From the NCBI GenBank assembly GCA_018902385.1, contig JABSSW010000009.1:682001-746000 (forward strand): a stretch of 64,000 bases of DNA, read 5' to 3'. Source of the DNA: Physcia stellaris (taxonomy: Eukaryota; Ascomycota; Lecanoromycetes; Caliciales; Physciaceae). The notes below the pieces were generated by a model. That model was not told the DNA's origin and ran no database searches. It saw only the letters and a program-made list of their open reading frames with translations. Position 1 is the stretch's first letter. Each line of letters begins with the position of its first letter. A program made the translations under genes and the position numbers. Positions 1 through 22,244 of the stretch are shown here, in pieces.

Positions 1-1710
1 ATGTGAAATTTACGACGTGATGAAAATTTCAGAAACGCGTTGAATCGTGTCAAAAACACGTTTTTGAAATTTAAAATTTCGTATTACAATTCATCGTCGT
101 GTTGATGAAAAAGACATCGTGTAAAAAAAATGAAAATGATGAAAAAAAGTTAAAAAATAGAAAAAAAACGAAAAGTTAAACGACGAAACGAAATCAATTT
201 CGTCATATTTTCAATTTCAACATCACAATTTCACGATCGTGAAACAATTTTGCGCATAATGAGAACAATTGTTTGAATCACTAAATCACTCATTCATTTA
301 AACGACTAATCGAATGAAATTTTGAAACAAAATTTTCGATTTGTGTACGATTAAAAGTCGTAAATGATCGATCAATTCGACGTCGTTTCATATATTTTAT
401 TTTCAACAATAATCGAGCAACAAAAATATGTTTTTGTTATCACATCTAGAATTTCGTATATTTGCGAAAAAAACTCATTTGATTTCATATCTCGTATCAT
501 GATTAACGTTATCAACAAAACGTCGATTTAATGCATGCATCTTTGCTTTTGTACAATTTAAATTTCTCAATATCTAAACAATAGATTTGTTCGTATATTT
601 TTTGCATTTTTTTCGAGATTTTTGCATCTCTGACGTATAAACAAGAACAAACAGTTTACAATTTCGTGAACAAAGACAATTTACGAAAACGAATTTTCAA
701 CATCGAAACATGCGAATGATAAATAAAATAAAAATGAAAAAGAAATTGAAAATGTATTTTTCGATTTTTTTTTTTCAGATTTCGCGTTTCATTCGTATCG
801 TTTGATTGTTGAAAAAATTTGATATGAATTACAAAATGATGTTTTACAATCGCGAGAAGAGCATGATTGTCTCAAAAAATTCAAAAAAATTCAAAATCAA
901 ACAACATTGCAAAAGAATTTCTTTGCAATTTCGTATATAACGAAAAATACAATGAAATCGACACACAACATAATTATTTTCGAAACAAAAATTCAATTGT
1001 GTTCAATTTCATTTTAAATCACAATTTCATTTCATTATTTCTCGTTTTCATCGTTTGATTCGACATTTTTTATTTGAATGTTCGAAAACGATGTTTTCGT
1101 CAACGTTTCATACATTTTTTTTGTTTGATTTTCTCGATCAACACAGTTTTTAGCATTTTTTTTTCGTTTTCATTCAAAAACGTTTGATATTTTCTTTTAT
1201 AAATCAAAAAAATGAATTTTTTTCAAATTTTTTTAAAAAACACATTTACAATTCTTTTTGCGACGCGAAAGCGACGCGATCTTGAAATTCAAATTGTAAA
1301 TGTTTTTGTAAAACGAAAACTCGAAATTTCTGTTTTTTCAATTGATGCGAAAACAACGATTTGAAACTCGATAGAATCGAATCGTTCGATTTCGAAATTT
1401 TCAAATTCGAAATCGTCGAAATTGTCGTCGTGTTCAAAATGAGTTTTTGTGTTCATATTCATAAATTCGTTTTCATTTTGAAACAAAAATAATGATTCAT
1501 TTTTGTCGACATTGAAATCGATTTTCTGCAATCGCTCGCGATTTGTTGTAAATTGATTGATGAACAATTTTTGACGATTTGATTGTCGTTGCGAAAAACA
1601 CGTTTCGAGACTCGATAATGTTGTTTTTATAACATTGATACGAGTTCGCGTGTCTTTGTCATGCACAAAAAAATTTTTAATTTTAAAAAAATCGAAAACA
1701 TCATTTTTGC
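1..1710. other. AT-rich island, left of the retrotransposon
   Basis: This stretch is strongly AT-rich and has no convincing gene. C is seen mostly before A or G, and CpC and GpG are nearly absent, as in the neighbouring retrotransposon, so it has probably been through the same mutational process. Open frames at 867-1058 (+) and 1289-1666 (-) encode low-complexity Asn/Phe/Lys/Glu-rich peptides that I cannot assign to any family. It is most likely decayed transposon DNA older than the Gypsy insertion at 1716. Confidence 0.7.
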
Positions 1711-1715
1711 GATCG
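1711..1715. repeat. Target-site duplication, left copy
   Basis: GATCG sits directly before the 5' LTR. The same five bases follow the 3' LTR at 11582-11586. A 5-bp duplication is usual for Ty3/Gypsy integration. The match fixes the element ends at TG (1716) and CA (11581). Confidence 0.75.
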
Positions 1716-1859
1716 TGATACGAACACAGATAATTGTTTGATGATTGCTAGCTCGCGCTAGACTGATTAACTGTACTTAAGAAAATTTCTACTTTAGTTA
1801 GCAATTCAATTCACTTACATTCATTGATATCGATTCTTAATAATTGACTATCTTTAGCA
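1716..1859 (+). repeat. 5' LTR (144 bp)
   Basis: It starts TGATACGAACACAG and ends TTTAGCA. It aligns without gaps to 11438-11581 and differs at 19 positions, all C/T or G/A. All 8 CpA and 4 CpG dinucleotides of this copy are kept in the 3' copy. Start and end were chosen by TG...CA ends and the flanking GATCG duplication. Confidence 0.9.
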
Positions 1860-2054
1860 AATGATAGCATCATAAATTCGATTTGTATTACGTATTTGAC
1901 ATCATTGATTGTCGATCGAATACGTCGTTTTACATCAGATCGAGCTTGTCAACAGTCAAACGCATTGTTTCAGCAACTTTATCAGTTTGACAAATCATTG
2001 TCAATTGTCAACTCTAGATCGTCGACTTAATTGTCGTGAAAAATCAATTTATTC

Positions 2055-4630
2055 ATGAATTCGACACGTCATTCACAGTCGAATGAGTTGACAAAACGTT
2101 CGAATCATAACGTGCGCGTTTATCAATTTCAATATTTCGTTATCGAAAAGTTTGAGACAAAGAAAGTTTTCGTCGTTTCGATTTTACAAAACAATTTAAA
2201 CAACAAAGTTGTTTTTCAAAAATCTTTCGCAAATTTCAATTCAGACAACTTTACATCAACAATTTCGTTCTCAAATCAACAATCGATTTTTATTTAGTTT
2301 ACGACTTTTCATTTTGTCAATTCTTTTCGAATTTGCTAAGTGACGAATCACGTCAAACGAATTTATCGCTCGAATTTTTATTTTAACGTTTGTTTCTTTT
2401 AGCGTTTGTTTTTTCGAAAAGTTTCGTCATTTGTTTTAGACAGTTTTTCGCTCATCTTGTTTATCTATTTTTGTTACGTTCATTTCATTGCATTTTGTTG
2501 TCATCGCTTGACGCAATATTTGTTTTAATTGACAAATCATTGTAATATATCAACTTGTCATTACATGACAAACATTTTTAGCTAAACAATCAAATTGATT
2601 TCGTTTGATATTTCGATTTCGCGTATTTCAATTCAATCGATGAGCAAAGAAATCGTCGTCATTGCGTGACATTTTCATGAATTTGAATTAGCAAATCATT
2701 CGTTGACAAAAATTTTATCAAAGAAAATCATTCAGACAGTGATAATTTTTGTAAATATCAATTTTCGATCAGCAAGATCGTCAACAATTCGAAAAATCAA
2801 AATAGCGTCAATCGAATTTTTAGAATATTCGTCAAAGTGAATTATCAACATTGTTATTTTTAAAGCGATCGCTTCACGATTCTTTAAAAAAATCGAAAAG
2901 TACAAGCAGACATTTGTCTATCAAAATTTTCAATTTAGACAAGAAATCGAAACATTTGACGACAGTTCGACATTTAATGATATTTCAATCATTTCGAATC
3001 GTAAAACAGTTGTATTTCAGATTATCGTTTCACGTATAAAAAGTCGATTTCGATACGAAAACGATATTTTCGTAATCGGACGAAATCAAACTCACGTTAG
3101 AATTTTTCGTGTTTCAAACTATTCATTTATTATCGATTCAGACAATCGTTTTATTATCGATAATCAACAAGTCAACAACAATTTGTTTATCGATAACAAT
3201 TCGACTATTACACGCGAAACGTCAATCGAGAAAATCATATACGATCAATTCATAAAATTTAATTCAATAATTGTCGTCATGAATTCAATTTTTCAAACAA
3301 TTATCACGATTGTCGTTAATGTCGTCGTTATTCAGACTACCGAAGATATTAGAGCAAAAATACGTCAAAAAATGCAACAAATCAATCAGCGAAATCAGCA
3401 AAAATCAGTTGAATCATTCGATTCATTCGATTCATCTGAAAATGACAATGATGACAATGACAATAATCAATTTCAGTCGAAACATTTAAGTTTTTTCGAT
3501 TCGTTTCATGACGACAAATCTGTAATTATCGATGCAGTTATGAAATTTACTAACGAGAACATCGTTTTTCGTGACGTTCATTTGTTCATGATTAGAACAA
3601 GAAATTTCGCTGTTATCAAAGACGAAGACATCGTACGTCGCAATCTTTTTCAATGTTTAAAGAATGACGTTTTGAATTGATATACGTCACTTTTTACAGA
3701 CATGAAAAAGAATTTTTGTTACTAAATCAAATCTTAAATCAGTGAAAAAAGTATTTAGTAAAAGAATTTCGGAAATCGTCAGCTAAAGTCATGAAAAAAC
3801 TCGTCAAAAAATCATACAATATGACGAATGCACAACATGAACGTGAATCTAGAAAATACGCGCAAAAAATAATTCGATTAAACAAGTCAATTGAATTGTC
3901 AATATTCAATCAATTATTACAAATCTGAAACGAACTCGACGTTGATTTTCAGTTACACGTCAATAAATCTATCAATGACATCAAATTGAGTGATTTTTTA
4001 CGAGACTTGAATGATCGAAAACACTCATGATGAAAATTGATTAACAAGCAATTTTTCGAATAGACTGATCGACGAAAAATCAATGTCAAAAATAAAGACA
4101 TTCGCGAGTAACGAGAAAATAAACAATCACAACGTGACATATCGAAAATAAATTATCGCGATCGCGATCAATCAAATGTCGAATATGACGACAATGTTGC
4201 TGATGAATATATTCAAAACGATTATTTTCGATTTGACATTCAATCAACTTTCATTTTTGCTCAATTTTCGAATTTCGTATCGCAGAACAATTATGTTTCG
4301 CAAAATTATGCTCAAATTTGAAATCAAAATCGTGCTTACATGCAACAGCAACAGTCAGCAAGTCAATTTTCAAACGTACAGCAACAGCAATCGGTTTTGT
4401 CAGTTTTTTCATCACGCAAACAATTGACAACTGATTTTTCGAATCAAAATCAACGAAATCAGCAAAGAAAAAACGCGTCAAATTCGAATCGTCGATCATT
4501 TGTATTTTTTAACGTCAACGCTCGCTCGTTTCAATCAATGTATCATAGCGTCAACGTCGACGACGTTGACGTCAACGATGAGAACGTCTATTATGATGAC
4601 AAAGCAATAAACGATATTACTTTCGTTTGA
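2055..4630 (+). pseudogene. gag-like region of the Gypsy relic (broken)
   Basis: Several blocks on the + strand (2055-2297, 2851-3039, 3183-3680, 4176-4427, 4340-4630) encode very polar, Asn/Gln/Ser/Lys-rich peptides between the 5' LTR and the protease, where gag belongs. The longest (3183-3680) has an acidic Asp/Asn cluster around residues 80-100. The 4340-4630 block is Gln/Ser/Asn-rich. No CCHC knuckle is visible here; a C2HC finger follows at 4803-4860. Assignment to gag rests on position, since the sequence is too mutated for direct recognition. Blocks 3183-3680 and 4340-4630 both end in TGA. Confidence 0.55.
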
Positions 4631-4693
4631 CACATTGTCGCGAAACGTCTTGCTGTTATCGAGAAAAATCAAAATCAATCTGAATTTGTCTTT

Positions 4694-5605
4694 TTGAACG
4701 ATTTAATCTTTCATTACGATTCGATGATTATGAACGCGTCGAAATTCTCATCTGACATTGACGAATCAAACGTTAATCACGTAATTTTTTCTGATTACAC
4801 GTGTCGAATGTGCAAGATTGATTTTTATTTCAACAACAAACTACATCGTCACGTTCGTATTTGTCGCAAAAAACGTGTCAATAATTTGTCGATTATTGAG
4901 TCAATGAACGCTTTTCACAAACATTCAATCGATGACAAAGTATTATCGATCGTCGAGTTTACAGTTATCATTATTTTCGACGTCGATTTCAATTTTCGTA
5001 AATGACATTATGTTAAACTAGAAGTCAGTCACAATTTGAATGACAAATTAATCAAGATTTGCGCGAATATCGACTGTATTATGTTTTTGATTGACAGAAA
5101 ATATTTATTGAAAATTAAATTCAATGTCACAATTCACAAAACAAAGCAGTCGATTCGAATACATGACATCGACGACAAGCTACATGACAACTCAAAATAT
5201 ACAAAGCTGAATTTTTACGTTGTCGATACGTTATCAAATCAATCATCAATTATAATTCATTTTCGTCGTGAAATTCACTTAGTGAATGATTTGAAAATTC
5301 ACGTTTTGCTCGATGTCGATATTTTAAAACTCGAGCAAATAATACTTGACATGAACAAACGTACTATCATTTTTCTCGTTTGTAACAATTTGACAACTTT
5401 CATGAAATTGATTTTCAAAAATCAACGCATTGTGCGAACAATAAAATCAATTAACAAAATCATTATATTTTCGCATATTTGTTTAATTGTATTTATCAAA
5501 ATACGCGATCAAAATCTGTCAGCAAATAGAAATTACAATTTCGAATTTAAACAAAATTTTCAGCAATTAGAATTCGAAAATGATTTTTTTCAATCACATT
5601 ATTGA
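4694..5605 (+). pseudogene. C2HC finger and retropepsin region of the Gypsy relic
   Basis: Block 4694-5005 contains C-x2-C-x12-H-x3-C (CRMC ... NNKLHRHVRIC), the finger that precedes the protease in many fungal Gypsy elements. Block 5036-5605 matches the aspartic protease region of the same elements, with recognisable stretches such as REIHLVNDLKIHVLLDVDIL. The catalytic D-T/S-G triad is not intact: the expected site reads roughly CIMFLIDRKY, with Gly lost. Both blocks end at TGA. Beyond 5,580 the reading moves to another frame through a T-run (5582-5588). It is non-functional. Confidence 0.75.
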
Positions 5606-7478
5606 TGTTCATTTCGTCGTCGTACAAATACGAAACGTTATCAATAAATCAATAATTTTGTCAAAGCATGCAAAAATTGACATGCTACGCGACTTCGAGA
5701 AAAAAGATTGTTATCATGTCTTTCTTGACGATCGACATTTAGCAATCGTCTCGTCACGTAATTGGACGAAAACGTTACGTAATGTAATCATGATGAATTT
5801 AATCGACGTTTTCGCTGATTTTATTACGTTTAACATTTTTTCGACTATCATTTTTATGCAAGTCAATTCGTCAGCTAGTTCAGTATTTGATATATCGATA
5901 TTCGAAACTATTGTGTCATTTATTTCGTTGGAAATCGTCATGTCAAACGAAATTATCGTTTTTGACGATTCGTCTGTTTACAATCGACTTTTCACGATAA
6001 CGAAAATTTATTTCGAAATCTGACGTGACATCGACGACACGATCAACGTGTTCGAAAAACAATGAATGTTTATATTTACTCTATTTAACGCTAAGTCGAA
6101 AATCAACAAAATGTATTCATTTAGTTCGAAAAATAAGAAAGTAGTCGACAAAAAGTTCGATCGATTACATAAAGAAAACAAAATAACGTGAATTAATCAG
6201 TCTATTTCGTACGATTATTCAGTTTTCGTAATATGACGTATTGTCAACGAGCAACGCAAGAATCGCGTTGTAATAAATATTCGTGAACTAAATAAAATCT
6301 CGATGTTCGACGTTTATTTCATGTCGTTACAATCAGACATTCTGTCAGCAATTATCGATTGCTCGTACATATCGATGATGAATTGTGTCGATTTCTTTCA
6401 TCAGTGATTAGTACGAATGATGAATAAACACAAATTGACAGTGATCAGTCATCGAGACAGCGAACAATGAAACGTAACTGTCATGAATTATCGCAATTCT
6501 TTTGTCTACGTTCAACGACAAATCGATTCGATTTTACGAAAATATCGACATTTTGCTAAAACGTATGTAGACGACATAGTAATATTTTCGAACTCGCTAA
6601 AAAAACATTTACGACACTTGAATCAAATTTTCGCTTTTTTCAAGCGCATGAACATAATTTTCAAAATTAACAAAATTTTTCTTGATTATTCTATCATATC
6701 ATTGCTAAATCAACGAATCGATAATTTGAAATTGATTATCGCGACGAATAAACTTGAGACTATTTTCGTTTTAATCTTCTCTCAAACTCTTAAACAGTTG
6801 AAAATTTATCTAAACAAAATCGAATGATTGCGTCAATACGTATCATATTATGCTCAGAAAGCGTTGTCATTACAAAAACGTAAAACTCGTCTGTTACGTC
6901 ATGCATTTAACAAAAAACGATCTCGTCAACAACATAATCGACGTATTTCAATCGATGATTCGTCGTCGATCGAAATAAACGTCTTTAATCAACTACAAAA
7001 CGTTTTTAATCGATCAACGTTTCTGATTCATTTCGACAAAATTAAAATTCTGTATATCGACGTGAACGTCAACAAAAAACGCGACTTTGACATTATGATT
7101 TATCACGTTAAATTTAAGAACGAACAGAAAATAATGATTATCAGCATTTCGCTCAAGCGAACGAACGTCGAATTCATTATGTTTTTAAACAAGATATTAT
7201 CGTCAACAAAATCTCGTTACTGATCAACGAAACTGAAAATGACATCACTAATATGATTTGTTCGTAAATTTCGCTTGATGATCATGAGCAATCAACATTC
7301 AATTGTCATTTACATCGATCACGTCGCAAATTCGACTATTGTCAATCAAATTAAATTGACATTCAACAATGTGAATAAATTGAATTTCAAATTAATAAGA
7401 ATCAACATTTATCTTTTCAGTTTCGTCTCAGAATTTTTCATAAAGTCGAAAAGTTTAATATCGTATCAAACGTTTTAA
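5580..7478 (+). pseudogene. Reverse transcriptase / RNase H region of the Gypsy relic
   Basis: The reading contains a protease-RT linker (5580-6023), the RT palm and fingers (about 6,030-6,830) and RNase H (about 6,830-7,478). The active-site box YVDDIVIFS is intact near 6,570. Upstream, RKNRVVINIRELNK, LQSDI and FFHQ are typical RT boxes, as is YVQRQID after them. TGA codons at 6405-6407 (after FFHQ) and 6825-6827 (before LRQYVSYYAQKA) stand where relatives have Trp. RNase H ends with a recognisable NIVSNVLSRL segment, read in another frame after a one-base shift near 7,420. It is inactive. Confidence 0.88.
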
Positions 7479-7489
7479 GTCGACTTTCA

Positions 7490-9034
7490 ATCGTACGTCA
7501 CTTCAATTCAAATACAAAAATCGATAATCTTGATTTGAAAACTTATCATTTTCACATCGATAAATCAGATTTCAACGAAAATTCGATACGAATTACGTTA
7601 ATCGAAATGTCATCGAACTTTCGCAAGAAACTCATTATCGAATATCAGAAAAACGCTAACTGAAAAGTCATTTTCGATTTGTTGAAGCGTTTCGTCAACG
7701 ACGACGTTAAAAATCGATTATCGAACAAGAAATCGACGATTATCGAAAAAATGTCAAGCGCGAAATCATTCACGATCATTTTCACGTCGACATTTTTTAA
7801 CGAAAACGAAATCACAGAAATCGTCATTTTTGTGTCGTTTACAGCGTTTGTTTCGTCGTCGAATAAAATCACGATGTCAAATAAAAAATCATTTTCGAAT
7901 TCAACATATTTGATTTCTGAAATCGATTTTCAATTTATCGACGATCTTATTTATTATGTAAAAAACGATCAATCTAAATTATGCATATCGGAAAATAATA
8001 TACACGACGTGCTCAAGTTAACACATGACGACAATTTTCATGTCGATCATTATCGAGTTTACAATCGACTAAAAACAATTTACGTACGACGACTTTTCAG
8101 ACGATTAATCAATTACATTCGTCATTGCTTTTCGTGTCAACTGAATCAAATTAAACGACATAAATTCTATGAAAAACTAGCATCGATAAGTATTTTCAAC
8201 ATGTTTTATCATACGATATCGATTGATTTTGTACTGATTCTATTTAAACAAAATCACGAATTCGATTGTTTCATGTTCGTTATTGACAAATTCACTCGAA
8301 AAACATTATTGATTCAGGAAAAAAGCACATGATCAATCGACGAATGAACAAACGTTTTGATCGATCGATTGTTGCTGACAAACTGAAATATTTCAACAAA
8401 GATCATCTTCGATCGAGATCGAAAATTCTGTTTCGATTTTTGACGAGTCATGTTCAAACGTTTAAACATTAATTTATTTATGAGCACGATTTATCACTCA
8501 CAAACGAACGATCAATCGAAACGTACAAATCAAACAATGAAAATTGCGTTTCGATTTTTTATTATCGTCAATTTCAATATGAGTTGAGTGAACGCGTTGT
8601 CAATTTTGCAATTCAGTTTGAACAACAATGTACATGCAATCATCGAAAAGTTTTTCAATCAAATCGTTATCGATTTTCAATTCAGAAAAATTATGATCGC
8701 GATAATCGTGTCATTTGCTTTACGACAATCGTCAAACACGATTATTTCAATCGCTAAATCGAAATTCGAGAAAAATCGCTTTGTTTTTCAAAAAAAAATT
8801 GACGAGATCATCGTCTTCGCGACAGCAAAAATTAAAATTTTTTATGACAAGCGTCATCAACATTTGAAATTTAATTTCGAAAATAAAGCGTATTTTCGTT
8901 TGTATCACGAATACTTTTTTTCGTCTCAAATCAATGTTAAATTGTTTAATCAAAGAATCGAATCGTTTCTGATAAAACGCAAAATAGAAAAATTTGTTTA
9001 CGAATTGAATTTGTCGTTCAAATGACAAATTCAT
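7490..9034 (+). pseudogene. Integrase region of the Gypsy relic
   Basis: The N-terminal zinc domain is visible (THDDNFHVDHYRVYNRL, then IRHCFSCQLNQIKRH, an HHCC pattern). The catalytic core follows: SIDFVLILF (first Asp), FMFVIDKFTRKTLLI, and across stops DRDRKF and YHSQTNDQSKRTNQ, corresponding to the second Asp region and the YHPQTDGQSER box with Pro and Gly lost. TGA at 8330-8332 and 8345-8347 replace two conserved Trp codons. The C-terminal part runs to 9025. The block between 7,490 and 7,679 continues the same frame with one TGA. It is inactive. Confidence 0.88.
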
Positions 9035-9039
9035 TCAAT

Positions 9040-9490
9040 CATATTCATCATGCAACTGAAATCGACGTCAAAAGACGTCGATTTTTATAATCGATTTCGT
9101 TCGAATCATTTCGACGTCGTCGAAATGAAAAACACATTTAACATTTTTTGAAAAAAGTTTTACGAAATAAAAAAGCTGATGAAAAAAAAAAATCGAAAGT
9201 ACGACAAAATCAAAATAGTGAAATATTTGATAAAGTGATTAAATTATGAATTTGAATTTGATGAATGAAAATCATTGTCAACTTTAACGAATTTCATGAC
9301 ATTGATGAAAAATTACGAGAAATTCAATTCTCAATCAATCACATCAGTTTCAAACACGATTCGCGTTATCGATTTTATATCATCGATTTTTAACAATTCA
9401 GAACGCAAACGAGATAAATTCAGCAAAATTATCGTCGAAAATCAGCAAAAGCGCAAAAGAAATCGACTCAAAAAAATCAACGCATTTTGA
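9040..9490 (+). pseudogene. C-terminal chromodomain of the integrase (degenerate)
   Basis: Read in the integrase frame, the sequence gives KIVKYLIK, a stop, LNYEFEFDE, a stop, KSLSTLTNFMTLMKNYEKF. This matches the chromodomain of fungal chromoviruses, where relatives have Trp at both stops (KW.GY...DEW). The stops are TGA at 9236-9238 and 9266-9268, so both are explained by TGG to TGA. Chromodomains of this type direct integration to marked chromatin. The reading ends at TGA 9488-9490 after a basic Lys/Arg tail. Confidence 0.75.
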
Positions 9491-10151
9491 ATAAATGCGT
9501 ACGTTGATTTCGTCGACGAGTAAATTTTATCATCATCGTGATTTAGATATTATTAAACAATCTCGCTCAATATTTTAGCGTTTCGCTTAATAGACATTGT
9601 CGCGTCGTTAATCGAATATCGCAAATTTTCACTTTGAATTTTCATTTTGAATTTTCATTTCGAATTATCATTTCTATTTTTTATTTTCGTTTTGCTCGTC
9701 GTTAAGATTGACTTATCGTTATTCAACATGATTACATTCAGTTTTCAACATCGTCAAATGCATTTCTTAGTTAATTTTAATTGAAACGCGTCAATCGTTT
9801 TCGAAATTGCAAAAATGCTTCACGATCGATTTGTACATCAAGCATTTTCCGAATACGATCTTTATAATGTGCGTTCATTCAATGAAAATTCAATTTGATT
9901 GAATGTTTTGTCAAAAAAGAATAATATTTTTCGACGATCTTCTTTGAATCGTGAAAAACAAATACGACATTTTCAACAAAGTCAAAAAACAGCGTTTTCC
10001 GATTGACTTTGTTAACAAAAAAAAAATTCATGATAATCGTTCGCATAAAAAAAAAATCGTCAAATACAATGACGACGCAAAAACGTGATATTATCGTCAG
10101 ACGTTTATTCAAAGCGACGATTCATATATCTTGTGAAAAAATGAAAACGAA
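9491..10151 (+). other. Non-coding section inside the Gypsy relic, with a short tandem repeat
   Basis: No recognisable domain. A 14-bp unit of the type TTTGAATTTTCATT is repeated about three times between 9634 and 9673. The minus-strand open frame 9879-10112 is not supported by any family. Confidence 0.6.
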
Positions 10152-11290
10152 ATGACATATGATAATTTATCGAAAAATCAACGTGATATCATGACAAAAT
10201 TGTCAATTGCAATGCAAAATAACAATGATTTTATCGTTGTTGAATTCAACGATGCATTAATCATAAATTTTGATAACACGTTTGATTTCGACTCAATCAA
10301 CTTTGCAAATTTCAATATTGTTTTTGCTATCGTCAATAGCAGCAAGACAAAGCAAGCATTTTCAATCGTCAATAACAACAAAACAAAATCGATATTCTCA
10401 ATCGTCGCTAGCAAGAACGACGTCGATGATGAAAACTCAATGTCGACGAGCAAAATCGACAAAATTCAGAAAAAAGACGAATTACGAAACGTGTCAATGC
10501 ATTCAAGCGACGCAAACAAACTCATCTATTGATTCGCGATTTGATGAATGACGAAACTCTTGAAAATGAAATTTTGATAAAAAAACCGACAAGCAATCAA
10601 GAAAAATCGAAAAAATCGAAAAAGTTTGACAGCGACGAAAACGTTGATAACGCGCAAATCAACAAAAAAATAATGTTCGAAAAAAGCATGAAGTCAATCG
10701 ACATTGACAAGACAATTGACAAAAACATCAAAATTGATTTCATCAAAACGTTCAAGTCGAAAAAAAATGAGAACAGCGAGAACAAAACAATTGACAAAAC
10801 AATTGACAAGAGCATCAAAATTGACTTCAACAAGACGTTCAAGTCGAAAAAAAATGAAAACAGCGACGAATTGCTCACTGATATTCAATTGAGCAAATTT
10901 CGATATCATGATTTTTTGCTCAGCGAAAAACTAAAAAACGTCGAAATTTTTTTGAATTTCGCACGAAAATTCGACAATCAAATTTTTGAACTATTTCAAC
11001 GCATCGAGATCATTCTAACAGATTTCGATGAATGTACGATATCAACTGTTGAAAAAATCGCAATCGACGAGTTTATCGAGACGTATCGAATCTGTCGAAA
11101 TCAAAAAGCGAAAATGAAAATCACATTGATCAACAAGCGTTCTGACTTAATCAAATTGATAATTCAACATATCGACTCAACGATCAAAAATGTTGAACGC
11201 AATTTTTTAAACGTCTGTTACGTCGTCGTTCGCGAAAAGCGTTTTCGATCGAACATTAACATCGAACATGATATTTTCAAAAAATATTGA
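10152..11290 (+). pseudogene. Extra ORF region between chromodomain and 3' LTR
   Basis: Two overlapping open frames (10152-10532 and 10529-11290, different frames) on the element's strand encode Lys/Asp/Asn/Ser-rich, probably disordered peptides with no recognised domain. Both end in TGA. The second is 253 codons long, unusually long for such AT-rich DNA, and contains an imperfect 29-residue tandem duplication built on KIDF.KTFKSKKNEN. The C-terminal 130 residues are less repetitive and look globular. It could be an additional element-encoded protein or captured sequence. Ordinary start codons are not obvious: the second frame opens at TTG, with an in-frame ATG a few codons on. Confidence 0.45.
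10714..10866 (+). repeat. 87-bp-period tandem duplication
   Basis: Copies at about 10714-10779 and 10801-10866 are nearly identical over 66 bp (AATTGACAAAAACATCAAAA versus AATTGACAAGAGCATCAAAA at their starts). The 87-bp period keeps the 10529-11290 frame (29 codons). Confidence 0.85.
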
Positions 11291-11437
11291 GCAAAATATG
11301 AATGAGCAAAACGCTGACGCTGAAACTTATACATCGTTAGCAAAATGATCACGAAAAGTTAAATGCTGAATATGAGACACAGACAAAGTGAACATGAAAT
11401 CAGCGTGAGCGTTGAGTTTTTTCTCGTTGCGAAATGT

Positions 11438-11581
11438 TGATACGAACACAGATAATTGCTTGATGATTGCTAATTCGCGCTAGATTGACTAGCTGTATTT
11501 AAGGAAATTTCTATTCTAATTAACAATTCAATTCACTTACACTCATTGATATCGATTCTTAGTAGTTGATTATTTCTAACA
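11438..11581 (+). repeat. 3' LTR (144 bp)
   Basis: Direct repeat of 1716-1859, same length, no indels. The 19 differences are all transitions. It ends TTTCTAACA and is followed by GATCG. The three bases before it (TGT at 11435-11437) are not matched before the 5' LTR, which places the LTR start at 11438. Confidence 0.9.
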
Positions 11582-11586
11582 GATCG
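11582..11586. repeat. Target-site duplication, right copy
   Basis: GATCG, identical to 1711-1715, immediately after the 3' LTR. Confidence 0.75.
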
Positions 11587-14500
11587 CAAACGATATTTGA
11601 ATGTCAATTGAATTTAAAATCGAATCAAATCAAATACAAATTTGAAATTGAAAAATTGCATATTCAACGAACATTGATTTTTTTTATGTATGTACGTGCA
11701 GTTGTCGCACGTTTCAAATTGATTTCTGATTTGACGACATAAACGAAAAATCAATTGAATTTGATTTTGTTCAGTTTGAACGCAACGAATGCACGTTTGA
11801 ATTGCATTTCGATCAATCGTTTAAAAATTTGTTAAACGATCGATTTTTTTTCAAAAAAAAAACATGTTTATTTGAATAATCAAAACGTCGAATTGTTGCG
11901 ATTGATGAATGTTGTCGAAATCAATGCGATTGATGAAATGCAAAAAAACGATGTGTTTGTCGAAAACATTCGTGAGTTGCAATCGTTTCATTAATGTTAT
12001 GCGAATTTTGAATTGCAATATCATCATTGTCAATCAAATTATCATGATGATTTCAAAATTCAATTCACGACGTCGAAATCAACGTCGATGACATCGTCAT
12101 CGAACACGTTTGAATACACATTAAAAATTGCATATAATTTCGAATATCAATGATACATTTACAAATGATCAAAAAATTCGCGTTGCGCGACATGATTGTG
12201 ATATTAAAACGAAAAAAAAAATCGAAATTCAAATAAATAAAAATGATTTTGCAAACGACGTTAATGATAAATATGTGTTGATGAATGATTTTCACATCAA
12301 AACAATAGAATTATCGAATTCACAAAAACAGACAATATCGTTATACATTCGTAGTTTCGAAAAACAATAGTAAACAATATTCGATGAAATATGCAAATTT
12401 AATTTATATTTTTGTACAATTAATCTATATTGACAGATAGTTCTATTTACAACGAATTTTCTATCATTTGATTCGAATATGTCACGTGAAAACGAGTATT
12501 TTCGACGACGACGATGCTCGAAATGTCAATGATTAAAATCACGCAAAATTAAAAATCAATTTTTCGAATTCGTCATGAGAACAACGATATTGACACAATC
12601 AAATCGTTTCGAATAGAAATAGCAAACATTATTTGAATTGATGAACGATTGTGTACGTTTGTACAATTCATTTGTATCGACAAATAATTGTATGTTTGAA
12701 ACGTTGATAACAATCGTATCATTTTCGCTGTGCGAAATCGAATATTTTTCACGAAAACGATATTCAAAAAAACAATGACTAATATTTGATAAAAATTCAA
12801 AATGTTTAATTTTCAAACATCAATACAATGTCAAACAATATCGTCGAAATCACATCGTTTCGTATAAAAACAACAAACATTATTCGATCGAATAAACGAT
12901 TTTGTGTTTTTGTACAATTCATTTTTGTTGACAAATAGTTTTATTTCAAAAACATTGTTTATTTTTTGATTGTTTTCGTTGAACGATAACGAATGATTTC
13001 ACGAATATCAAAAACTGAATAGTTGCGAAAAATGATAAATTCACGATTTCGAACGAGAACATGATCACAATACAAAAACAACATGATTTTTAAATTCAAT
13101 GAAAATTGTTTTTAGTTTATTTCGAATCTGCTCGTGAACAAAATTTTCTATTTATATTATCGTTTATAGCAAATAAAAAAATCGAATCGATGCAAATTGC
13201 GAGAATTGCGATTGAAACATTGATTGTTGATTTTCATTTTTTTCTATCGTGAAAAATGAAAACGAAAAAAATTTGTTGATTGCGAAATTTTTTGCGATTG
13301 TGATTTTGATTTCATCGTCAACGAAACGTTAAACGTTAAAACGACTTTCTTTTTGCGTTTTTTGATATTTTTTTTTTCGATCGACACATTTTTGCTAATC
13401 AATCAAATTTCTCGTTGCTTTTTATGTTCTCGAATAAATTTTTCAATTTCAATTTTTTTTTCATTCGATGACTCGACAATTTTGTTTTTTTGCGAGTTTT
13501 CGCGTCAAAATCAACTCGTCATGCTATTCAAATTTCGTTGTTTGATTTTTTTTGATTTCGAAAATCGATACACATATTCACAATTTCATTTTGATACAAT
13601 TTTCTATTGAATCAATTTTTGCAATATCGCAACAGAGCATTTCGATTTGTCAAAAATTCGACGAATTGAATGATAATTCGCAAAAATCGATCAAAAAATA
13701 TGATCGATTCGAACATGAAAATATGAAAACTCGCATATATTTCTCGAGTTTTTTCATTTTTTCATAAAATCAATTTCTTTGTAAAATACGCATGAAAGAC
13801 AATGTCGAATTTTTTGAACTCGAAATAAAATCGATGTTTCGAAATATGATTCGAAATGCAAAATGAACAGCACATCGCGAATTTGATTAGTTTGTTTTTT
13901 TCATATTCGACGTAGATTTCGTCGTCGTATCGTTTTAATTCGCACAATTTATTGCAAAAAAAATTGATTAATTCGATGTATGTCGATATTTGTTTTTGAC
14001 GTTGTTGCGCATTGCGAGCAAACTTCGTCGTTTTGTTCATTGATTTGATTCGAGAATCAACAACGTTGCTTTGATCGAATTTATATTCGCTATCGTTTTG
14101 CTCGAATATGTAAATTTTCAGCAATGAATTTCGATTTTCTTTATTTTTTTTGATTTTCGATAGATCGATTTTGTCACAAATTCATCGAGAAATCAACAAA
14201 TAACAAAATTCAAAAAAAATTTGACGAGCGTTTCGATTTTTTTTTTGAATCAAAACGTGTTTGTTTTTAGAAATCATTCAATTACAAATGATTTTGATAT
14301 TTGAATTATTCGCGTTCAATTTATATGTTTCGTTAACGATCAAAAATCGAATTGATAAATCAAATTCAAAGAAATTCGTTTGATTCGATTTCTCGAACGT
14401 ATCAACAATTTTCTTTTTGTCGTTATCAATCATGTTCGCATGATACGTTGCTATTCAACGTTTGACGACGAAAAAATAATGTCATTCGAAAAATCAAACG

Positions 14501-14967
14501 TTGATTGCAAATTGAACGAAATTTTGAATGTTCGATTTATTGTCGAAATAGAAAATCGTTTTGAAAATGTTATAAAAATCAATCGTATGAATCGAAAAGA
14601 AACGACGAAAATTTTCGAATTCGTTTTGATTGTTTTCGATAAATATAATATGCATATTGATTTTCGATTTATCGATAAAAATTTTGATTATTCGACAATT
14701 TTCGAAGTCAACGTTTTTTTTCACGACGATCAGCGTATCTTTATTCAAAATAGCGAAAATGTCAAAATATGACACATTCGAAAAAAATCGATTTTTGAAC
14801 ACATGAAACTCGTTGAATTTTAAACGAAAATTTCGTCAATCATCAATCAAATGCAATTCATTTACGATCACAATTGTCAAACGTTCTCGAAATTTCGATT
14901 TTTTGCAAATGTTCTCATTGAATTCGATCGAGAATATGTATTCGAAATTGATAAACATTGTTCATTG
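11587..14967. other. AT-rich island, right of the retrotransposon
   Basis: AT-rich, with the same C-before-A/G bias as the left flank. Open frames at 12128-12370 (+), 13353-13610 (+), 13762-14124 (-) and 14380-14772 (+) encode Asn/Ile/Phe/Lys-rich peptides that I cannot place. The 14380-14772 product (130 aa) and the 13762-14124 product (120 aa) are the least low-complexity and may be relics of real genes or transposon proteins. No LTRs or terminal repeats were recognised here. Confidence 0.6.
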
Positions 14968-15405
14968 TCAACAAAAGTTTTGACAATCGATTGAAAATTT
15001 CGTATCATGAATGTACATTTCGACAACAATTTTTTGACGATTCAATTTGAATTTATGATTTTTATCATAGACGAAAAATCGAATTCGAGAAAATTTATTG
15101 ATTTTTTCGTATTGTTGTTTCGCAATGAATTTCAAAGACATCATTATCAACACGATGTTCGTATTGCGAGAATGTAACAAAAACAACATGTTGAAAATCA
15201 AATTTTTGTCGAAATTGATTTTCGTTATCAAAATTAAAAATTTTTGAAACACGCAACGACATGTATGATTTTTATTTGTTTTTTTTTTTTTGAAATCGAA
15301 TATTTCAAAAATACGAATAGCAATTTGATTTAAAATCATGTTTTCGAATTTCGTATTATTTGAAATCGAAAAAATTTTTGTTGAAAAATTGTGTTCATTC
15401 GTCAA
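14968..15405 (-). pseudogene. Possible RecQ/DEAD-like helicase relic
   Basis: The 145-aa reading includes NKNHTCRCVFQKFLILITKI, then DKNLIFNMLFLLHSRNTN and IVLIMMSLKFIAKQQYEKIN. This resembles the start of RecQ-like helicase domains in fungal repeats: a Walker A region (TG.GKSLIF) followed by IV..PL..L..DQ. The Gly and Ser of the P-loop would be lost (..FDKN..), as expected from G-to-A changes. It ends in TGA. The match is from memory and the sequence is heavily mutated, so the call is tentative; a random low-complexity frame is the alternative. Confidence 0.35.
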
Positions 15406-15734
15406 AAATTTCGTTCATTTTGTTTCATTATCATAATCATTTTCATTTGATTTTTGTACATAAAAAATCGAAATTCACAAATCGCGATCGTGCGTATCAT
15501 TCGAAAATGTTGTATTCACGTTGAATGTTGTCAATGAATTTCATTGATTGAATGTAAAAATTCGAAAATTATGAAATGAATTGATCGTTTCAACAAACGT
15601 GTCGATGTTTATTGTGATATCGTGAAATCGTTTAAAAAATCGAGACGCGAAAATCATGATATATATCAAAAAAATCGATAATATTAAACATAAAATGAAA
15701 TTTTTTGATCAATTGCGCATTCGAGAATTGTTTT

Positions 15735-16150
15735 AAAATGATGATTTTGAAAATGAAACGAAATTTGTTTTCATTTTGTTTGCGATTCGTCAATTTCAAC
15801 AATCACGTTTTTTTAAAAAATATTTTTTGTGAAATTTTGTAATTCGATATCGAAATAATGATATTTTCGTTTTCAATTACTTGTAAATCGCGTGAAATGT
15901 TCAATAATGAATTGAACAAACGATTGAATTTGATGATTTATGATTTTGAAAATGTGACGAAATATGTTTGTCGCGTTGTTTTTTCGAATTTCGCAATTGA
16001 ATTGAACAACAATCACAATGTATTATGAAATTATTTCGTTAAAGCGTTGTAATTCGATATCGAATTAGCGATTTTTTCGTTTTCGATTAATTGTATTCGA
16101 CGTGAAATGTTCAAGAATGAATTTCGCAAAATGCTGAATTTGAATGATGA
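15735..16150 (+). repeat. 210-bp tandem duplication at the island edge
   Basis: A segment starting GTAATTCGATATCGAA at 15839 recurs at 16049 (GTAATTCGATATCGAAT). Similarity continues on both sides, for example CGTGAAATGTTCAA shortly after each copy and ATGATTTTGAAAATG before the first matching a similar stretch before the second. The period is 210 bp, with two diverged copies. The second copy ends close to the compositional boundary at about 16,160. Confidence 0.7.
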
Positions 16151-16480: not shown

Positions 16481-18971
16481 ATGGATATTCTTCTGGGCAA
16501 AGTCACCCAGCAGGCTATGAATTATGCTATTAGGTATCTAAAAGTGTTCATCGATGGTATCTTAATTTTCGCTGCTGATAGTACAGATCCGGTATAACAA
16601 TTACTGCTGGTTACGCTATTCGGCAGTCTTCAAGACTGCTCAAGGTAATCAAGGCACAGCTCGAGAGTAGTCTAGTCCTAATCTATGCGTAGACTGTCGA
16701 AGGTAGCGAGAAAGAGGAGCTACAAGACTTACAACAGCGACTGAACAGCAAGATCAGGGTTCGTATATGCTACCTTGACATTATACGCTCCACCACACCT
16801 GTAGCAATGGGATCTGGAACATGTCTACACGTGTCTCCTCCCTCATTGTTTGACTTTTCATTCTGAGACTCTTCTGACTTCTTTTGGTAGATCATATCTC
16901 CTGCTATTGATATGATAGAACTGATGTACGTAATATTTTTATAGACCTCTTAGAACTCTGTTCTAATCCCTTTCTCAGTTCTGCTCGGGGCAATACCTCT
17001 TTAGAGTCTGCTGTTTCTCTTACGAAAACTCTCCGCTGGGAGATACAATCCCTTGGGCAGCGTCTTGCGGCGGCGGCAAACGCCGAGGAGCTATCGCAGC
17101 GCGGAAGCTCAAAGGCGCAGAACAAACTTCAAAACCAGGCCGAGCTGAAGCGGATCATAATCGCAATCCGCAAACTGCTTAGTCAAATAGAGGACGCTGT
17201 TCCTCTCATAAACCTCGCTATTACAGCTTCGGGAGCCAGTCTATCATCAACTTTACCTTCTACCGTCTCTCCCTCCAGGCTGCTGCAGGCTAGCACCTTC
17301 CTGACAGCCGGGGATGCCCAGTATGGCATACCGCCTTTCCGACCTGTACAAATCGGACCAGGTTTCACCCTCTCGATGTACATGCTTTTTCTTGGACATG
17401 TCAGACCTCAGAATGAGGATGACGTAAGGCAGAGCACGTGGAAGGAAGTGATCCATAAAGCGCACGTCAAATTGATGAGAGTACCAATAGATGCAATATA
17501 CCAATCGCCAGGGTCTCAAAAGCCAAAACTCATCAGAAGCACTGATGGCAGTGATCATCGCCATGGTCAAGCTACTGAGGGCTACTTTCCGGATCAGCTT
17601 GACGGAGAAGGAAAAGCCGACGAGTATGCTTACCAATTGGTAATCATCGAAGATCTTGATGACGATCGTGTGCACACGTTTGACGATGATGAGGAACAAC
17701 CTGGACCGTGTGAAGAGGTAGAGCTTGCCGGGATTCGGGAAGCTATACCTATTCACGAGCTGTCCAAGATCTTCTACGCCGACACGGGTAAGATACTCAA
17801 TATTGGAAACGAAGGAGAGACAAACAGCCCAGTTTTATTGCTCAAACGCGACCTCAATGCTGTGCCCCCTCGGCGTATGATGGAACGTTATAGCGAAGAA
17901 GGCACAGAAGTACTTCATGGCAGCAACTTGAACGGGCCGGAAGCGTCATCGGCAAATGGCGACCATGAAAGTGCATCTCAGCTTATCTTGAGCCAAAATG
18001 AACAACAAGAATCTCCTCCGGCCTCAGAAACCTCGCAAGCTAAAGCCCTGATTTCTGCACCGAACCCCTGGCGTCTTCCAGCAGATCTCGACCCTGAATG
18101 GATTGCCTTCGAGGTGTATGCGGAATCACCAGACTCGGACGCTGAGTCCGAGGCCGAGACGTCCACCACCCAGCCCCCCAGAAAGCCATCCCGCACGCCG
18201 TCTCTCGACGCACAAGCAACGAGCGCCTTCTCCCGCCTTCAGCTGGCGAGCTCATCACCTCCATCACCCTATCGTCCTGCTAGCCCCGCTTACAGCCAAA
18301 CATCCACACAACCCCGCCTCCCAGCAATCCAGACCTCGCTCTCCCTTCTTGAGACTATCCTTCGCCTCCTGTCTCTACAGCAATTCCAACAACTGCCGCA
18401 CCTCTCCATTCCAGACGAGCTCCTCACTTTCTTCCTCTCTGAATCTGCATCTACGGGCTCAGACGGCGAGGATCGAAAGCGATTACGCAATGAAGCGCGG
18501 CGGCGCGTAGGCTTCGATCCATACGACGAAAGCCCCGTGAAGAGGCGCGGAGAGGAATACCAGTACCAGCGGCCGCAGAATGGAGATGGCTGGAGCAGCA
18601 GCGAGGGCTACGATGACTATGGAAATGGGAGTCCATCCCCTGCCGTTGCAGCGTACGAGGGCTACGGGATTCCAATCCGCTTTGATGAAGGCTATGAAAC
18701 CCATCCCTGGGGTAGCCGATCGCCAGCGCCAAGAGCTTCGCCTTCGCCGAAGACACCACCTCTGCTGCTGAAGGGGCAATCACCTAGAAGCTCGGCGGGT
18801 AGTAATAGCTCGCCTCTGAGATGGGCTGGACATAGAGCGATGGCAGGAGATAGGGAGGCGGGAAAGAGGGGGAGCCCGCTTGCGAGGCCAGCTACGGGGA
18901 GATCGGATGAGGGATTGGGGACGAGTCCTGGGAGTCCAGGAAAGGTAGAGGGTGAAGACGAAAAGAGATAG
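16481..18971 (+). CDS. RanGTP-binding protein (Yrb30-like)
   Basis: Five exons: 16481-16533, 16587-16644, 16693-16758, 16891-16925, 16979-18971 (2,205 nt, 734 aa). The start MDILLGKVTQQAMNYAIR, then SGITITAGYAIRQSSRLLK, and the run from ARGNTSLESAVSLTKTLRW to DPEWIAFEVYAE match the fungal Ran-binding family that includes yeast Yrb30, which binds Ran-GTP and takes part in nucleocytoplasmic transport. Conserved blocks include WKEVIHKAHVKLMRVP, YQLVIIEDLDDDRVHTFDDD and SPVLLLKRDLNAVPPRRMMER. The C-terminal 300 residues are Ser/Pro-rich and probably disordered. Splice sites were chosen because each restores the conserved reading. The first exon lies only about 320 bp from the AT-rich island, yet the gene shows no RIP-like damage. 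Confidence 0.85.
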
Positions 18972-19616
18972 CTCAGTGCCAATAAGTGGAGAGGAGAAAT
19001 GAGCTTTGGTTGTCACGAGCTGATGCTGGTTACGGCCTGTTGAACCAGGAGCGGCCCTTGGAGTCCGGATGTGGAATTAGATACCCAAATGTTGTTGCTT
19101 AGAATCGATTAATGCTCCTCCTCCTAACGTCGATGTGACTAAGAGCCTTATTCCTCAGTTGAAGACCTACATGCTGGACTGGTTTCTTTGCTCTCGAACC
19201 GCCAGTCATATCTCTCAGCTGTCATAATGCCTACGAGAGTGTTGAGCCAGACACTCTCCTGTAAAACTACTGTGCTAATTCGACAAACGCTCATAGGGTA
19301 CGTCAAGGTGTTTGCAGAACAACCGTTCCCCACCTGCGGCTATCATAAAGGATACAGGTGACTTGAGTCTTCCCCCTTTTCCCCCACTCCACAAAATCAG
19401 GCTTTTCCAACCAGTGACCACCGAAAGGCAGTAAATCCACCTTCATCGAAAAAACAGTCATCCTCCTTCCAAAAAGCCCAGTCATTGGAAGAGACAAATA
19501 GTATCCAACCGAGTACAGACCGCCAACACGAACCCTCGAGCGGGCATCTGGATTACTTTAATAACAGAGAAAACCGCTTCCCGAGGAAAGTTGTGGAACT
19601 GGGCTCTTTTTCCCCC
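18972..19616. other. Spacer between the RanGTP-binding gene and the BTB relic
   Basis: No supported gene. Minus-strand frames at 19148-19333 and 19303-19497 lack recognisable domains. The left part should hold the 3' end of the RanGTP-binding transcript. Confidence 0.6.
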
Positions 19617-20400
19617 TCAGGTGTCCGATTCGTGAGAAAATCCGACGGGCCCTCTCTTTGCTATCAAACACAAAACATTGCTTTCCAAGGAATCGCCAAT
19701 CAGCGAGCATAGCAGCCACACCACCTGATAGATGCTCTCAGTAAGCTTCCGTGAGCGGCGACGTTGTTCGTCTACCCAATTATAGATGGCTTCGAATATG
19801 TCCTCTTTGAAAGTGCGGCTTACGAGCATATGTTCATGAAGAGTGCTTAGAATAGCATTAGAACGCCAGTCTCTGCTGGCGGCATCGCTGCTCATCAAGC
19901 TGACCATACCCTATTTGGCTACAAGATTTTGAAGCTGAGACGGTTGAAGGATCGGATGGTCTAAATGTAGCGTACCTGCCGGGAGCTGAAGGTGTAGCCT
20001 TTTTGCATGTTGTCTTGAAACTTCTTCAGAGCTAGCTTTTGCAAGGCTGGGATTTTGAGGTTCTTATAATCGTTGATGTAGAATAAGGAGATATAAATAT
20101 CTAGGCCAGACATTCCCCTAATGTTGTTCCACAGGTCGCCGGGTAGAGCATCGGTCAAACCAGAGTACAGCCATTGCACCACGAGCTCGAAGGTCTCATG
20201 AGACTTGAGGTGCGTTACTAGATGATCAGCAAAGCCGTGTTGCGTATTCTACTCCTTTCAATGGTGTCAAGACGAGCTCTAAAGTTGGAAGAGTAGCGAC
20301 AAAGCAAAGCCTTGTGAATGTACCAACGCTGCGCGTCGTTTGGTAGAGTTGCTACAACGATCTCAGTATTGGTGAGACTGCTTGAGCATCGTCGGTCACG
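19617..20400 (-). pseudogene. BTB/POZ-domain protein, probably decayed
   Basis: Minus-strand pieces make up a fungal BTB protein. About 20400-20250 reads TEIVVATLPNDAQRWYIHKA and LLCRYSSNFRARLD. About 20250-19976 reads HETFELVVQWLYSG, then YISLFYINDYKNLKIPALQK and FQDNMQKGYTFSSRQ. After an intron (19911-19975, GTACGC...ATAG) exon 19910-19617 continues with TFKEDIFEAIYNWVDEQ. Pieces one and two are in different frames, joined at about 20245-20265 with no room for an intron, and no start codon in frame is visible upstream before a stop. This points to a frameshifted pseudogene. A sequencing indel plus an unseen first exon is the alternative. BTB proteins of this size are numerous and fast-evolving in filamentous fungi. 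Confidence 0.55.
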
Positions 20401-21242
20401 ACAAGAGAACGGAGGACGATGTCACAAGATACCTACAGAGCAAGTTCATGAGCAGTACGCCCAAGTCGAGCTATTTTGCAAGGCGTTGCGCGTTGTAATG
20501 TGTTATCAACCTATAATCTTTCGAGCTGAGGACTAGGTAGCTTTTACATGCTTGGAGGTTCTTCCTACGAGACAGAATGAATGAAGACAGAAAATAGAAA
20601 GCTATGTGTTGGAGCAGGGTTATACGACGCTTTAGAATATGACAAAATGGTTCACCAGGGCTAGGCCCAAATGCATTGCAATCTTTTCGTGTACACAAAA
20701 CGCAATCCATTCGGTTAGGAACCATCTGCATCAGCATCGGAGAGCTGAGAGATTACAATGACATACTGGGCATGGGTACAATATATATTAAGATCTAATT
20801 CTGCCTGAGCTTGTGCATGTGGCAAAGAGGGAAAATCAGTGGACGATTAGTAGGCATCAGTCGACAACAGAGCCTAGTTCTTGGAGAATATGGGGAACAT
20901 AATCCACTTATTGGTTGACCCCAGATTCCAACGTAACCTCGTACCACACCTTACAAGGGGGCTTTGATAGCTGCAGGCGCCTGTGCCAACCTGCTTTTCA
21001 ACAATTCAGTATGCACACATCCGGGGGCAAGAAGCAAACCAAAGTTTCAATTCACTGACAATTCCCAGTATCAAATGATGCCTCAGATGGCGGATGAACG
21101 CGAACTCTATCTTGAAACTGTTCCGCACAAGAATTTTGAGTCAGTACAAGTTCCAATGCTAAACAGCAGATCTCGAGCCGAGGAAAACCCTTGGTTAGGA
21201 TTCATAAGTCACAACTTGCAATGCTTCACCTGCGTGACCGCT
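20401..21242. other. Spacer without a supported gene
   Basis: Frames at 20318-20536 (+), 20471-20737 (-) and 20964-21380 (+) have no recognised domain; the last overlaps the 3' exon of the SPF30-like gene. The 3' end of that gene's transcript should lie just left of 21243. Confidence 0.55.
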
Positions 21243-22244
21243 TCAATATCCTTCCTCTTCCGCGCCTTGCTGGTAGATGTGGCGACTTCTCGAAGGGTCC
21301 TTCCGCATCTGTTGCCCCGAACCCGTGAAACCCACTGCGTACGGATTAGCACGTTTGAAAAGCGTAGAAGATTCACATAACATACCCCTCGCGTTTACGC
21401 CATCGGGTGTTCGAAACATGCTCTCCTTCTTTGCTGCCTTACCTGTTTTGCCCTTCGAGGAAAAGTCCTGCCATTTACTCTTCCCAGCCTCAAGCTCTTT
21501 GTTGGCTTTGACTTTTCGAGGCACTTTGGCCGGTCTCGTTGGCCCATCGCTGACTTTGCTGGGTTCCTTCTTAGCTTGGCTTGCAAGGTCAGGATTTATG
21601 TCCGCTGCCGCGGATATAACATTTGACTTGGCAGGTAACGTTGGTGTAGTCGGAGTGCCTGGCGTACCATCAGCCTTACGCTTTCTTGAATCGCTAGAAA
21701 TCGGCTTGATGTCGTGAGCAGATAATGTCTCTGTGTTCGAATATGATTTGAAGGTCACATGGTAGACAGGTTTGCTAGATGATCCGGTAATAGAAGTGAT
21801 TCGTGCTGGGTAGAACGACTTGTCGCCAGACACCCATTTGGCTAGAACATTATCGTTCACAGAGAAGGAGGTCGGTCCTTGGGGTTCTTCGGCAGGGCTC
21901 AACGGTGTTGCCGGTTTTCTGTATCCCGCCTGGAAAGCCGGGTGGTTTTCCTTGGACCACTTCTCTTTCACAAGAGGTGGAGATGGCTTGCTAGCCGGTG
22001 CTGATGCTGATGCGGGCTTTAGCTCTGCGATCGCGGTCTCGGTAAGGGTAATGACTTCTTCAAGTTCCGATTTGAGGTTTTGCAGCTCAGCATTCTCTGG
22101 GTCTGCTTGGAGACTGGACTGTACATTTTCGAGCTAGGTAAAGATGTCTGTAAGTGTGATGTCGCGATACAGAACAAACAGGCTGCTTACCTGGAGCTTG
22201 TACTCCTTCACTTCCACTTCTAGTACGGCAACCTCGTTGCTCAT
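21243..22244 (-). CDS. SPF30/SMNDC1-like Tudor-domain splicing factor
   Basis: Exons 22244-22191, 22133-21386 and 21334-21243 (894 nt, 297 aa). The N-terminus (MSNEVAVLEVEVKEYKLQ, then NAELQNLKSELEEVITL) is a short coiled coil. A single Tudor domain at about residues 110-165 reads FSVNDNVLAKWVSGDKSFYP ... YHVTFKSYSNTETL. The tail is basic and ends near FTGSGQQMRKDPSRSRHIYQ. SPF30 proteins bind symmetrically dimethylated arginine on Sm proteins and act in spliceosome assembly in the nucleus. The last intron (21335-21385) is 51 nt, a multiple of three and free of stops, so retention would insert 17 residues. The gene diverges from the AP-1-like factor. Confidence 0.82.

What the first reader, a model, noticed from the sequence alone, without database searches (positions are those of the whole stretch)
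1716..11581. RIP-like mutation that hits CpT (and CpC) instead of CpA
The two 144-bp LTRs were identical at insertion, so their differences show what mutated. I aligned them by eye: 19 differences (5' LTR positions 1737, 1751, 1752, 1763, 1767, 1770, 1776, 1782, 1792, 1794, 1797, 1801, 1820, 1840, 1843, 1848, 1852, 1854, 1857), all transitions, no indels. At each site the unmutated base is C before T or G after A in 18 cases, and G after G once. None is in CpA/TpG or CpG. All 8 CpA and 4 CpG sites are shared by both copies. Classical RIP in ascomycetes prefers CpA. Other preferences have been reported in a few fungi, so novelty must be checked, but this is a clean C-before-pyrimidine signature and implies a mutator (RID/DIM-2-like or other deaminase route) with altered specificity.
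Basis: partly seen in the sequence, partly recalled or inferred. Interest (0 to 1): 0.88.

Follow-up and report, generated by a model that had tools for sequence, protein, structure and literature searches.

The report
Repeat mutation at CpC and CpT
In the genome of a lichen-forming fungus, transposons have been wrecked by C-to-T mutation almost only where the C stands before C or T, the reverse of the usual fungal preference for C before A, so standard screens for this genome defence would miss it.

Summary
The window lies in the lichen fungus Physcia stellaris. All 19 LTR differences are transitions, 18 at CpT and one at CpC. In eight within-element LTR pairs, 129 of 139 transitions are at CpC or CpT. 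Across 12 copies the share of C sites differing is CpC 96%, CpT 74%, CpA 7%, CpG 5%. In 146 AT-rich 1-kb windows CpC is nearly gone (.0012 per base against .120 in gene DNA), CpT falls to 28%, CpA and CpG stay close to gene DNA. The order is CpC > CpT >> CpA, CpG; two published orders put CpC last. Of 286 stops in 150 reverse-transcriptase matches, 250 are TGA, the stop this specificity makes. Standard RIP indices flag 0 of 146 windows by the composite index. Best reading: RIP-like mutation of repeats by a RID-family methyltransferase homologue with altered 3' specificity. RID-type, DmtA-type and DIM-2-like genes are present; which acts, and when, is not shown.

The parts
1716..11581 (+). Ty3-type LTR retrotransposon, heavily mutated at CpC and CpT
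   Evidence: LTR pair; weak RVT_1, RT_RNaseH and Integrase_H2C2 matches, all just under the curated cut-offs, in frames scanned with X at stops; copies elsewhere in the assembly
1716..1859 (+). 5' LTR, 144 bp
11438..11581 (+). 3' LTR, 144 bp
1711..1715 (.). target-site duplication GATCG, left
   Evidence: read
11582..11586 (.). target-site duplication GATCG, right
   Evidence: read
5571..7475 (+). pol frame, 635 codons with 0 TAA, 0 TAG and 9 TGA; reverse transcriptase and RNase H
7379..9520 (+). pol frame, 714 codons with 0 TAA, 0 TAG and 11 TGA; integrase
1..16150 (.). AT-rich block in which CpC is almost absent; right edge between about 16,100 and 16,200
12300..14300 (.). stretch of a second repeat in the same block, with seven other long copies at 88-93% identity and one short match at 79%
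17001..64000 (.). gene DNA, CpC, CpT, CpA and CpG all near expectation; comparison region

Best explanation
RIP-like, repeat-directed C-to-T mutation with its 3' specificity changed to pyrimidine. Cytosines on both strands of transposons become T when the next base is C (fastest) or T (several times slower); C before A or G is nearly spared. Shown: the signature, its recurrence in the copies sampled, its absence from the gene DNA sampled, the sharp edge in this window. Shown in part: targeting of repeats. Inferred: that it happens in the sexual cycle as RIP does, and that a RID-family cytosine methyltransferase homologue (the RID-type gene on C5 or the DmtA-type gene on C6) carries the altered specificity.
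For: LTR pairs 129 CpY to 10 CpR. Twelve copies: CpC 676/702, CpT 17020/22859, CpA 2499/37734, CpG 1867/40019 of C sites differ. CpC .0012 against .120 and CpT .038 against .135 per base, CpA and CpG nearly unchanged. Unmutated relative L053 against L034: CpC 20/20, CpT 4/8, CpA 0/17, CpG 0/18 changed. Unmutated pair L050/L051 shows no such bias. Mutated stretch repeated, gene control single copy. TGA is 250 of 286 stops in RVT_1 matches and 147 of 150 in integrase zinc-domain matches. RID-type, DmtA-type and DIM-2-like genes with methyltransferase domains present.
Against: L050 and L051, 95% identical over 3.28 kb, are not mutated, so not every repeat is hit. 33 TAA and 3 TAG among the RVT_1 stops, CpA 6/52 and CpG 2/35 changed in L053 against L046, and two short comparisons of L054 with little bias mean a weak CpR activity or background is not excluded. 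No cross, methylation data or gene disruption; no relatives' DNA; AT-rich regions fetched were chosen mostly as copies of this element.
Confidence: 0.72

Rival explanations
1. Slow decay after methylation: a DIM-2-like enzyme keeps repeats methylated at CpC and CpT and 5-methylcytosine deaminates over time, without a RIP-type burst.
For: A DIM-2-like gene is present, best solved matches 9bap and 9baq; intermediate copies exist (L037, L054).
Against: Near-extinction of CpC in 93 of 146 windows down to zero and every one of eight LTR pairs already 8-16% diverged suggest a strong, repeated process; but rate was not measured, so this is not excluded.
Confidence: 0.2
2. A cytosine deaminase of APOBEC or AID kind, acting on single-stranded DNA or cDNA.
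For: C-to-T bias on retroelements.
Against: The base after C decides, the base before C hardly matters (ACT .75, GCT .67, TCT .78 differing); both strands are hit. That deaminases of this kind read the 5' base is recalled.
Confidence: 0.04
3. UV-type mutation at dipyrimidines.
For: CpC and CpT are dipyrimidines.
Against: TpC is also one, yet TpC density is unchanged (.147 against .148) and TCA and TCG remain abundant; gene DNA is untouched.
Confidence: 0.01
4. Sequencing or assembly artefact, such as modified bases misread by Nanopore.
For: The assembly rests partly on Nanopore reads.
Against: It also uses Illumina reads at about 30x. Copies differ from one another at CpT sites, intermediate copies exist, and five homologous proteins from other (ENA) records hold 2 Pro and 1 Gly in 1,097 residues. 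Raw reads were not seen.
Confidence: 0.02

Closest known systems
RIP of Neurospora crassa (RID-dependent)
   Same: C-to-T on both strands of repeated DNA, AT-rich blocks, gene DNA spared, RID-family gene in the genome.
   Different: N. crassa order is CpA>CpT>CpG>CpC (passage); here CpC>CpT with CpA and CpG nearly spared.
RIP of Trichoderma reesei
   Same: C-to-T in duplicated sequence.
   Different: CpA and CpG lead, CpC is last (passage).
CpT-biased RIP of Magnaporthe oryzae, Botrytis cinerea, Sclerotinia sclerotiorum and some Colletotrichum truncatum families
   Same: CpT is a main target.
   Different: In the first three a CpA signature was found as well and no CpC signature is mentioned in the passages seen. 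The C. truncatum CpT families have (CpA+TpG)/(ApC+GpT) of 0.08-0.12, so CpA is depleted there; here that index is 1.2-1.4.
RIP of the lichen fungus Cladonia rangiformis
   Same: Lecanoromycete, strong RIP, RID and DIM-2 homologues, sharp compartments (passages).
   Different: Context not given in the passages seen. Its mutated DNA peaks near 16% GC, lower than the floor of about 20% that retained CpA and CpG impose here, so its specificity probably differs (inference).
CpG-type mutation in basidiomycetes (Microbotryum, Rhizoctonia AG8)
   Same: C-to-T with a 3' context.
   Different: CpG is the target there (passages); CpG is kept here, observed/expected 2.9.

Membership tests
Repeat-induced point mutation (RIP) | C-to-T and G-to-A transitions on both strands | tested here: met
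   24,578 transitions to 3,338 transversions in 79 alignments; CpT and ApG both depleted in four copies
Repeat-induced point mutation (RIP) | acts on repeated DNA and spares single-copy DNA | tested here: inconclusive
   mutated stretch has seven other long copies, gene stretch is single copy, but L050/L051 are an unmutated repeat pair
Repeat-induced point mutation (RIP) | CpA preference (usual, not strictly defining) | tested here: not met
   CpA 7% of sites differ against CpC 96% and CpT 74%; composite RIP index positive in 0 of 146 AT-rich windows
Repeat-induced point mutation (RIP) | RID-family methyltransferase homologue in the genome | tested here: met
   C5 and C6 genes, PF00145 matches, motif PPCQ; RID and DmtA labels rest on hit names and recall, no Neurospora RID was in the tree
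Repeat-induced point mutation (RIP) | occurs before meiosis and depends on RID | not testable with these tools
   needs crosses and gene removal
CpG methylation-deamination | CpG depletion in repeats | tested here: not met
   CpG .122 per base in AT-rich against .112 in gene windows
UV-type dipyrimidine mutation | loss of C in TpC as well | tested here: not met
   TpC .147 against .148 per base

The most novel reading that the evidence does not exclude
A RID-family enzyme in Physciaceae has had its 3' base preference inverted from CpA to CpY, CpC first: a distinct CpY-RIP. Its one route to a stop is Trp TGG to TGA, it strips Pro, Gly and Trp from transposon proteins, and CpA-based indices cannot see it, so surveys may have scored whole lichen clades as weak or negative. 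The DmtA-type paralogue may be the enzyme that took over.
Probability: 0.5. Interest if true: 0.9.

Novelty: new variant of a known kind. Interest (0 to 1): 0.8.

Why it matters
A 2025 survey of 1,239 fungal species concluded that RIP-like defences share a preference for CpA (section 9 of PMC12543289). This genome is a strong counter-example. From the published GC of 43.32% and the means, about a third of the assembly could be mutated (0.32; an inference, since the sample was not random), yet the composite index finds none of 146 sampled AT-rich windows. It would be a natural specificity switch in a small enzyme family, making the residues that read the 3' base testable. It also gives cheap detectors: CpC loss, (TpT+ApA)/(CpT+ApG), and long frames without Pro, Gly and Trp.

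Tried and rejected
Deaminase, UV-type, CpG decay and artefact readings were weighed and set low (see rivals). HP1 by PF01393: no match, but the controls rang nowhere, so it says nothing. rRNA pseudogenes as a directional test: not completed; the unmutated relative L053 served instead. The catalytic-loop string FFSDAHT as a specificity switch: in 92 of 243 retrieved proteins, Alectoria and Usnea among those read, so not special to Physcia and no proof without their DNA. The C118 LTR pair may not be one element; without it the count is 108 CpY to 5 CpR. The pairwise counts reuse the same copies and are not independent, and 2,394 C/T differences whose next base also differed were left out of its fractions. 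In one search, L053 was tried against 11 loci and aligned with 2, L054 against 5 and aligned with 2. The RVT_1 and integrase tallies cover 150 listed rows, 150 scored of 527 and of 658 candidates; TAA and TAG, and all integrase counts, were read off by eye. The rve search gave 14 weaker matches, 2 with TGA and none with TAA or TAG. No relatives' DNA could be searched. No structure was predicted. Clutterbuck 2011 (recalled) was not looked up and may bear on novelty.
Full report
What was checked. The element is flanked by the 5-bp repeat GATCG (read).

Where it is. The window is C9:682001-746000 of an assembly of 43.97 Mb in 147 contigs. A methyltransferase on C5 is 99% identical to Physcia stellaris G7Y79_00005g016670, whose contig has exactly the length of C5. 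The published contig N50, 586.07 kb, matches the length of C28. The host is therefore the lichen-forming fungus P. stellaris. The results section of its genome paper does not mention RIP (section read); its other sections were seen as passages only.

The signature. On both strands of window 1-15900, CpC is 12 counts (observed/expected 0.02), CpT 0.40, CpA 1.22, CpG 2.90; in 17001-64000 they are .95, 1.08, 1.09 and .88. Over 244 1-kb windows from the window and 20 fetched regions, GC is bimodal: 146 below .36, 95 above .42, 3 between. Per base, AT-rich against gene windows: CpC .0012/.120, CpT .038/.135, CpA .123/.134, CpG .122/.112, TpC .147/.148, TpT .328/.132; 93 of 146 hold no CpC. So nearly all lost GC is CpC and CpT. 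Most regions were fetched because they hold copies of this element, so this is not a random sample. The edge of the block lies between about 16,100 and 16,200.

Alignments. In eight within-element LTR pairs 139 transitions fall 118 CpT, 11 CpC, 5 CpA, 5 CpG, with 5 transversions; shared C sites are 81 CpT, 136 CpA, 70 CpG, both strands counted. The 10 CpR changes are of the order of the transversions. In 79 alignments of 12 copies, C sites differing are CpC 676/702, CpT 17020/22859, CpA 2499/37734, CpG 1867/40019. The CpA and CpG part may hold older divergence between source elements; weak CpA activity is not excluded. The base before C matters little.

Direction and control. Unmutated L053 (C76) against a mutated stretch of L034 (one 123-column alignment): CpC 20 of 20 turned to T, CpT 4 of 8, CpA 0 of 17, CpG 0 of 18; against L046: CpC 36/40, CpT 26/49, CpA 6/52, CpG 2/35. 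L054 against L033 and L034, short and diverged alignments, shows little bias: CpC 4, CpT 7, CpA 3, CpG 2, and CpC 1, CpT 3, CpA 2, CpG 2. The unmutated pair L050/L051, 95% identical, has C/T differences spread over contexts: CpC 27, CpT 34, CpA 20, CpG 29, both directions summed, so the bias is not the ordinary mutation of this genome. L054 (C25) may be an early stage: CpC .073-.085 with CpT .115-.122 in four of five 600-base windows, though its original composition is unknown. A simulation from gene DNA brackets the CpC:CpT rate ratio between 2 and 8, near 4.

Consequence for proteins. If CpA and CpG are spared, CAA, CAG and CGA do not become stops; TGG does, through GpG, as TGA. In the element the frames 5571-7475 and 7379-9520 hold 635 and 714 codons with no TAA or TAG and 9 and 11 TGA (these are the longest such runs in their frames), and four frames of 2,239 residues hold 0 Pro, 1 Gly, 1 Trp. 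Across the assembly, 150 RVT_1 matches hold 250 TGA, 33 TAA, 3 TAG; 150 listed integrase zinc-domain matches hold 147 TGA, 2 TAA, 1 TAG. The 36 TAA and TAG stand against strict exclusivity. A search with one stop-free piece found five proteins from ENA records, with 2 Pro and 1 Gly in 1,097 residues but His and Gln kept. The query is itself stripped of Pro and Gly, which favours such hits. Hosts are unknown.

Repeats. Window 12300-14300 has seven other long copies at 88-93% and one short match at 79%; gene stretch 26261-28261 has none. L050/L051 show that some repeats are unmutated; new, protected or domesticated copies are all possible.

Machinery. PF00145 finds three genes. C5: a 932-aa protein in the database, PPCQFFSDAHT, placed with lichen RID-type proteins. 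C6: about 512 aa after two GT-AG introns, PPCQSFSPAQS, joined to Eurotiomycete DmtA-type proteins (support 95/76 at that fork). C3: 1118-aa frame, DIM-2-like, best solved matches 9bap and 9baq. The labels rest on hit names and recall; no Neurospora RID was in the tree. Which gene acts is not shown.

Literature. RIPCAL: CpA dominant in Stagonospora with CpT in some classes, doubtful whether CpT is RIP (passages). Amselem 2015: CpA, CpT and CpG signatures; the CpT species also show CpA (passages). Anisogramma: CpA and CpT (passages). N. crassa CpA>CpT>CpG>CpC; T. reesei CpA and CpG first, CpC last (passage). Colletotrichum truncatum: CpA or CpT by family, CpA depleted in both (passages). Van Wyk 2021: CpT to TpT dominant in alignments of RIP-capable fungi (passage), which tempers the novelty of CpT alone. 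The 2025 survey: shared CpA preference (section 9 read). The ten searches listed no paper whose title or abstract start tells of CpC-led or CpA-sparing RIP; most listed papers were not opened and subscription papers are not held.

Detection gap. With product >1.1, substrate <=0.9 and composite >0, my settings, the 146 AT-rich windows score 0, 1 and 0 positive.

Verdict. Observation confirmed, interpretation supported and sharpened: a new variant of RIP-like mutation, with enzyme and timing inferred.

Noticed in passing
L050 (G000:C5 near 1165082) and L051 (G000:C12 near 58872): Two integrase-bearing elements, 95% identical over 3.28 kb with long open frames, carry no CpY depletion: repeats that escaped.
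   Followed up: partly
L030:2904-4559 (G000:C6): A second class-I methyltransferase gene, DmtA-type, intact after two introns; its closest relatives found include Heterodermia (P0128).
   Followed up: partly
P0239 (protein): A retroelement protein from another record has no Pro and no Gly in 334 aa, and its six Trp stand at the TGA positions of this element; perhaps TGA was read as Trp by the gene caller.
   Followed up: partly
L054 (G000:C25 near 270443): An element with CpC reduced but CpT near normal and 2 TGA in its integrase match: a possible early stage of the process.
   Followed up: partly
window 12300-14300: A second repeat in the same AT-rich block, with seven other long copies; the block looks like nested transposons.
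   Followed up: partly
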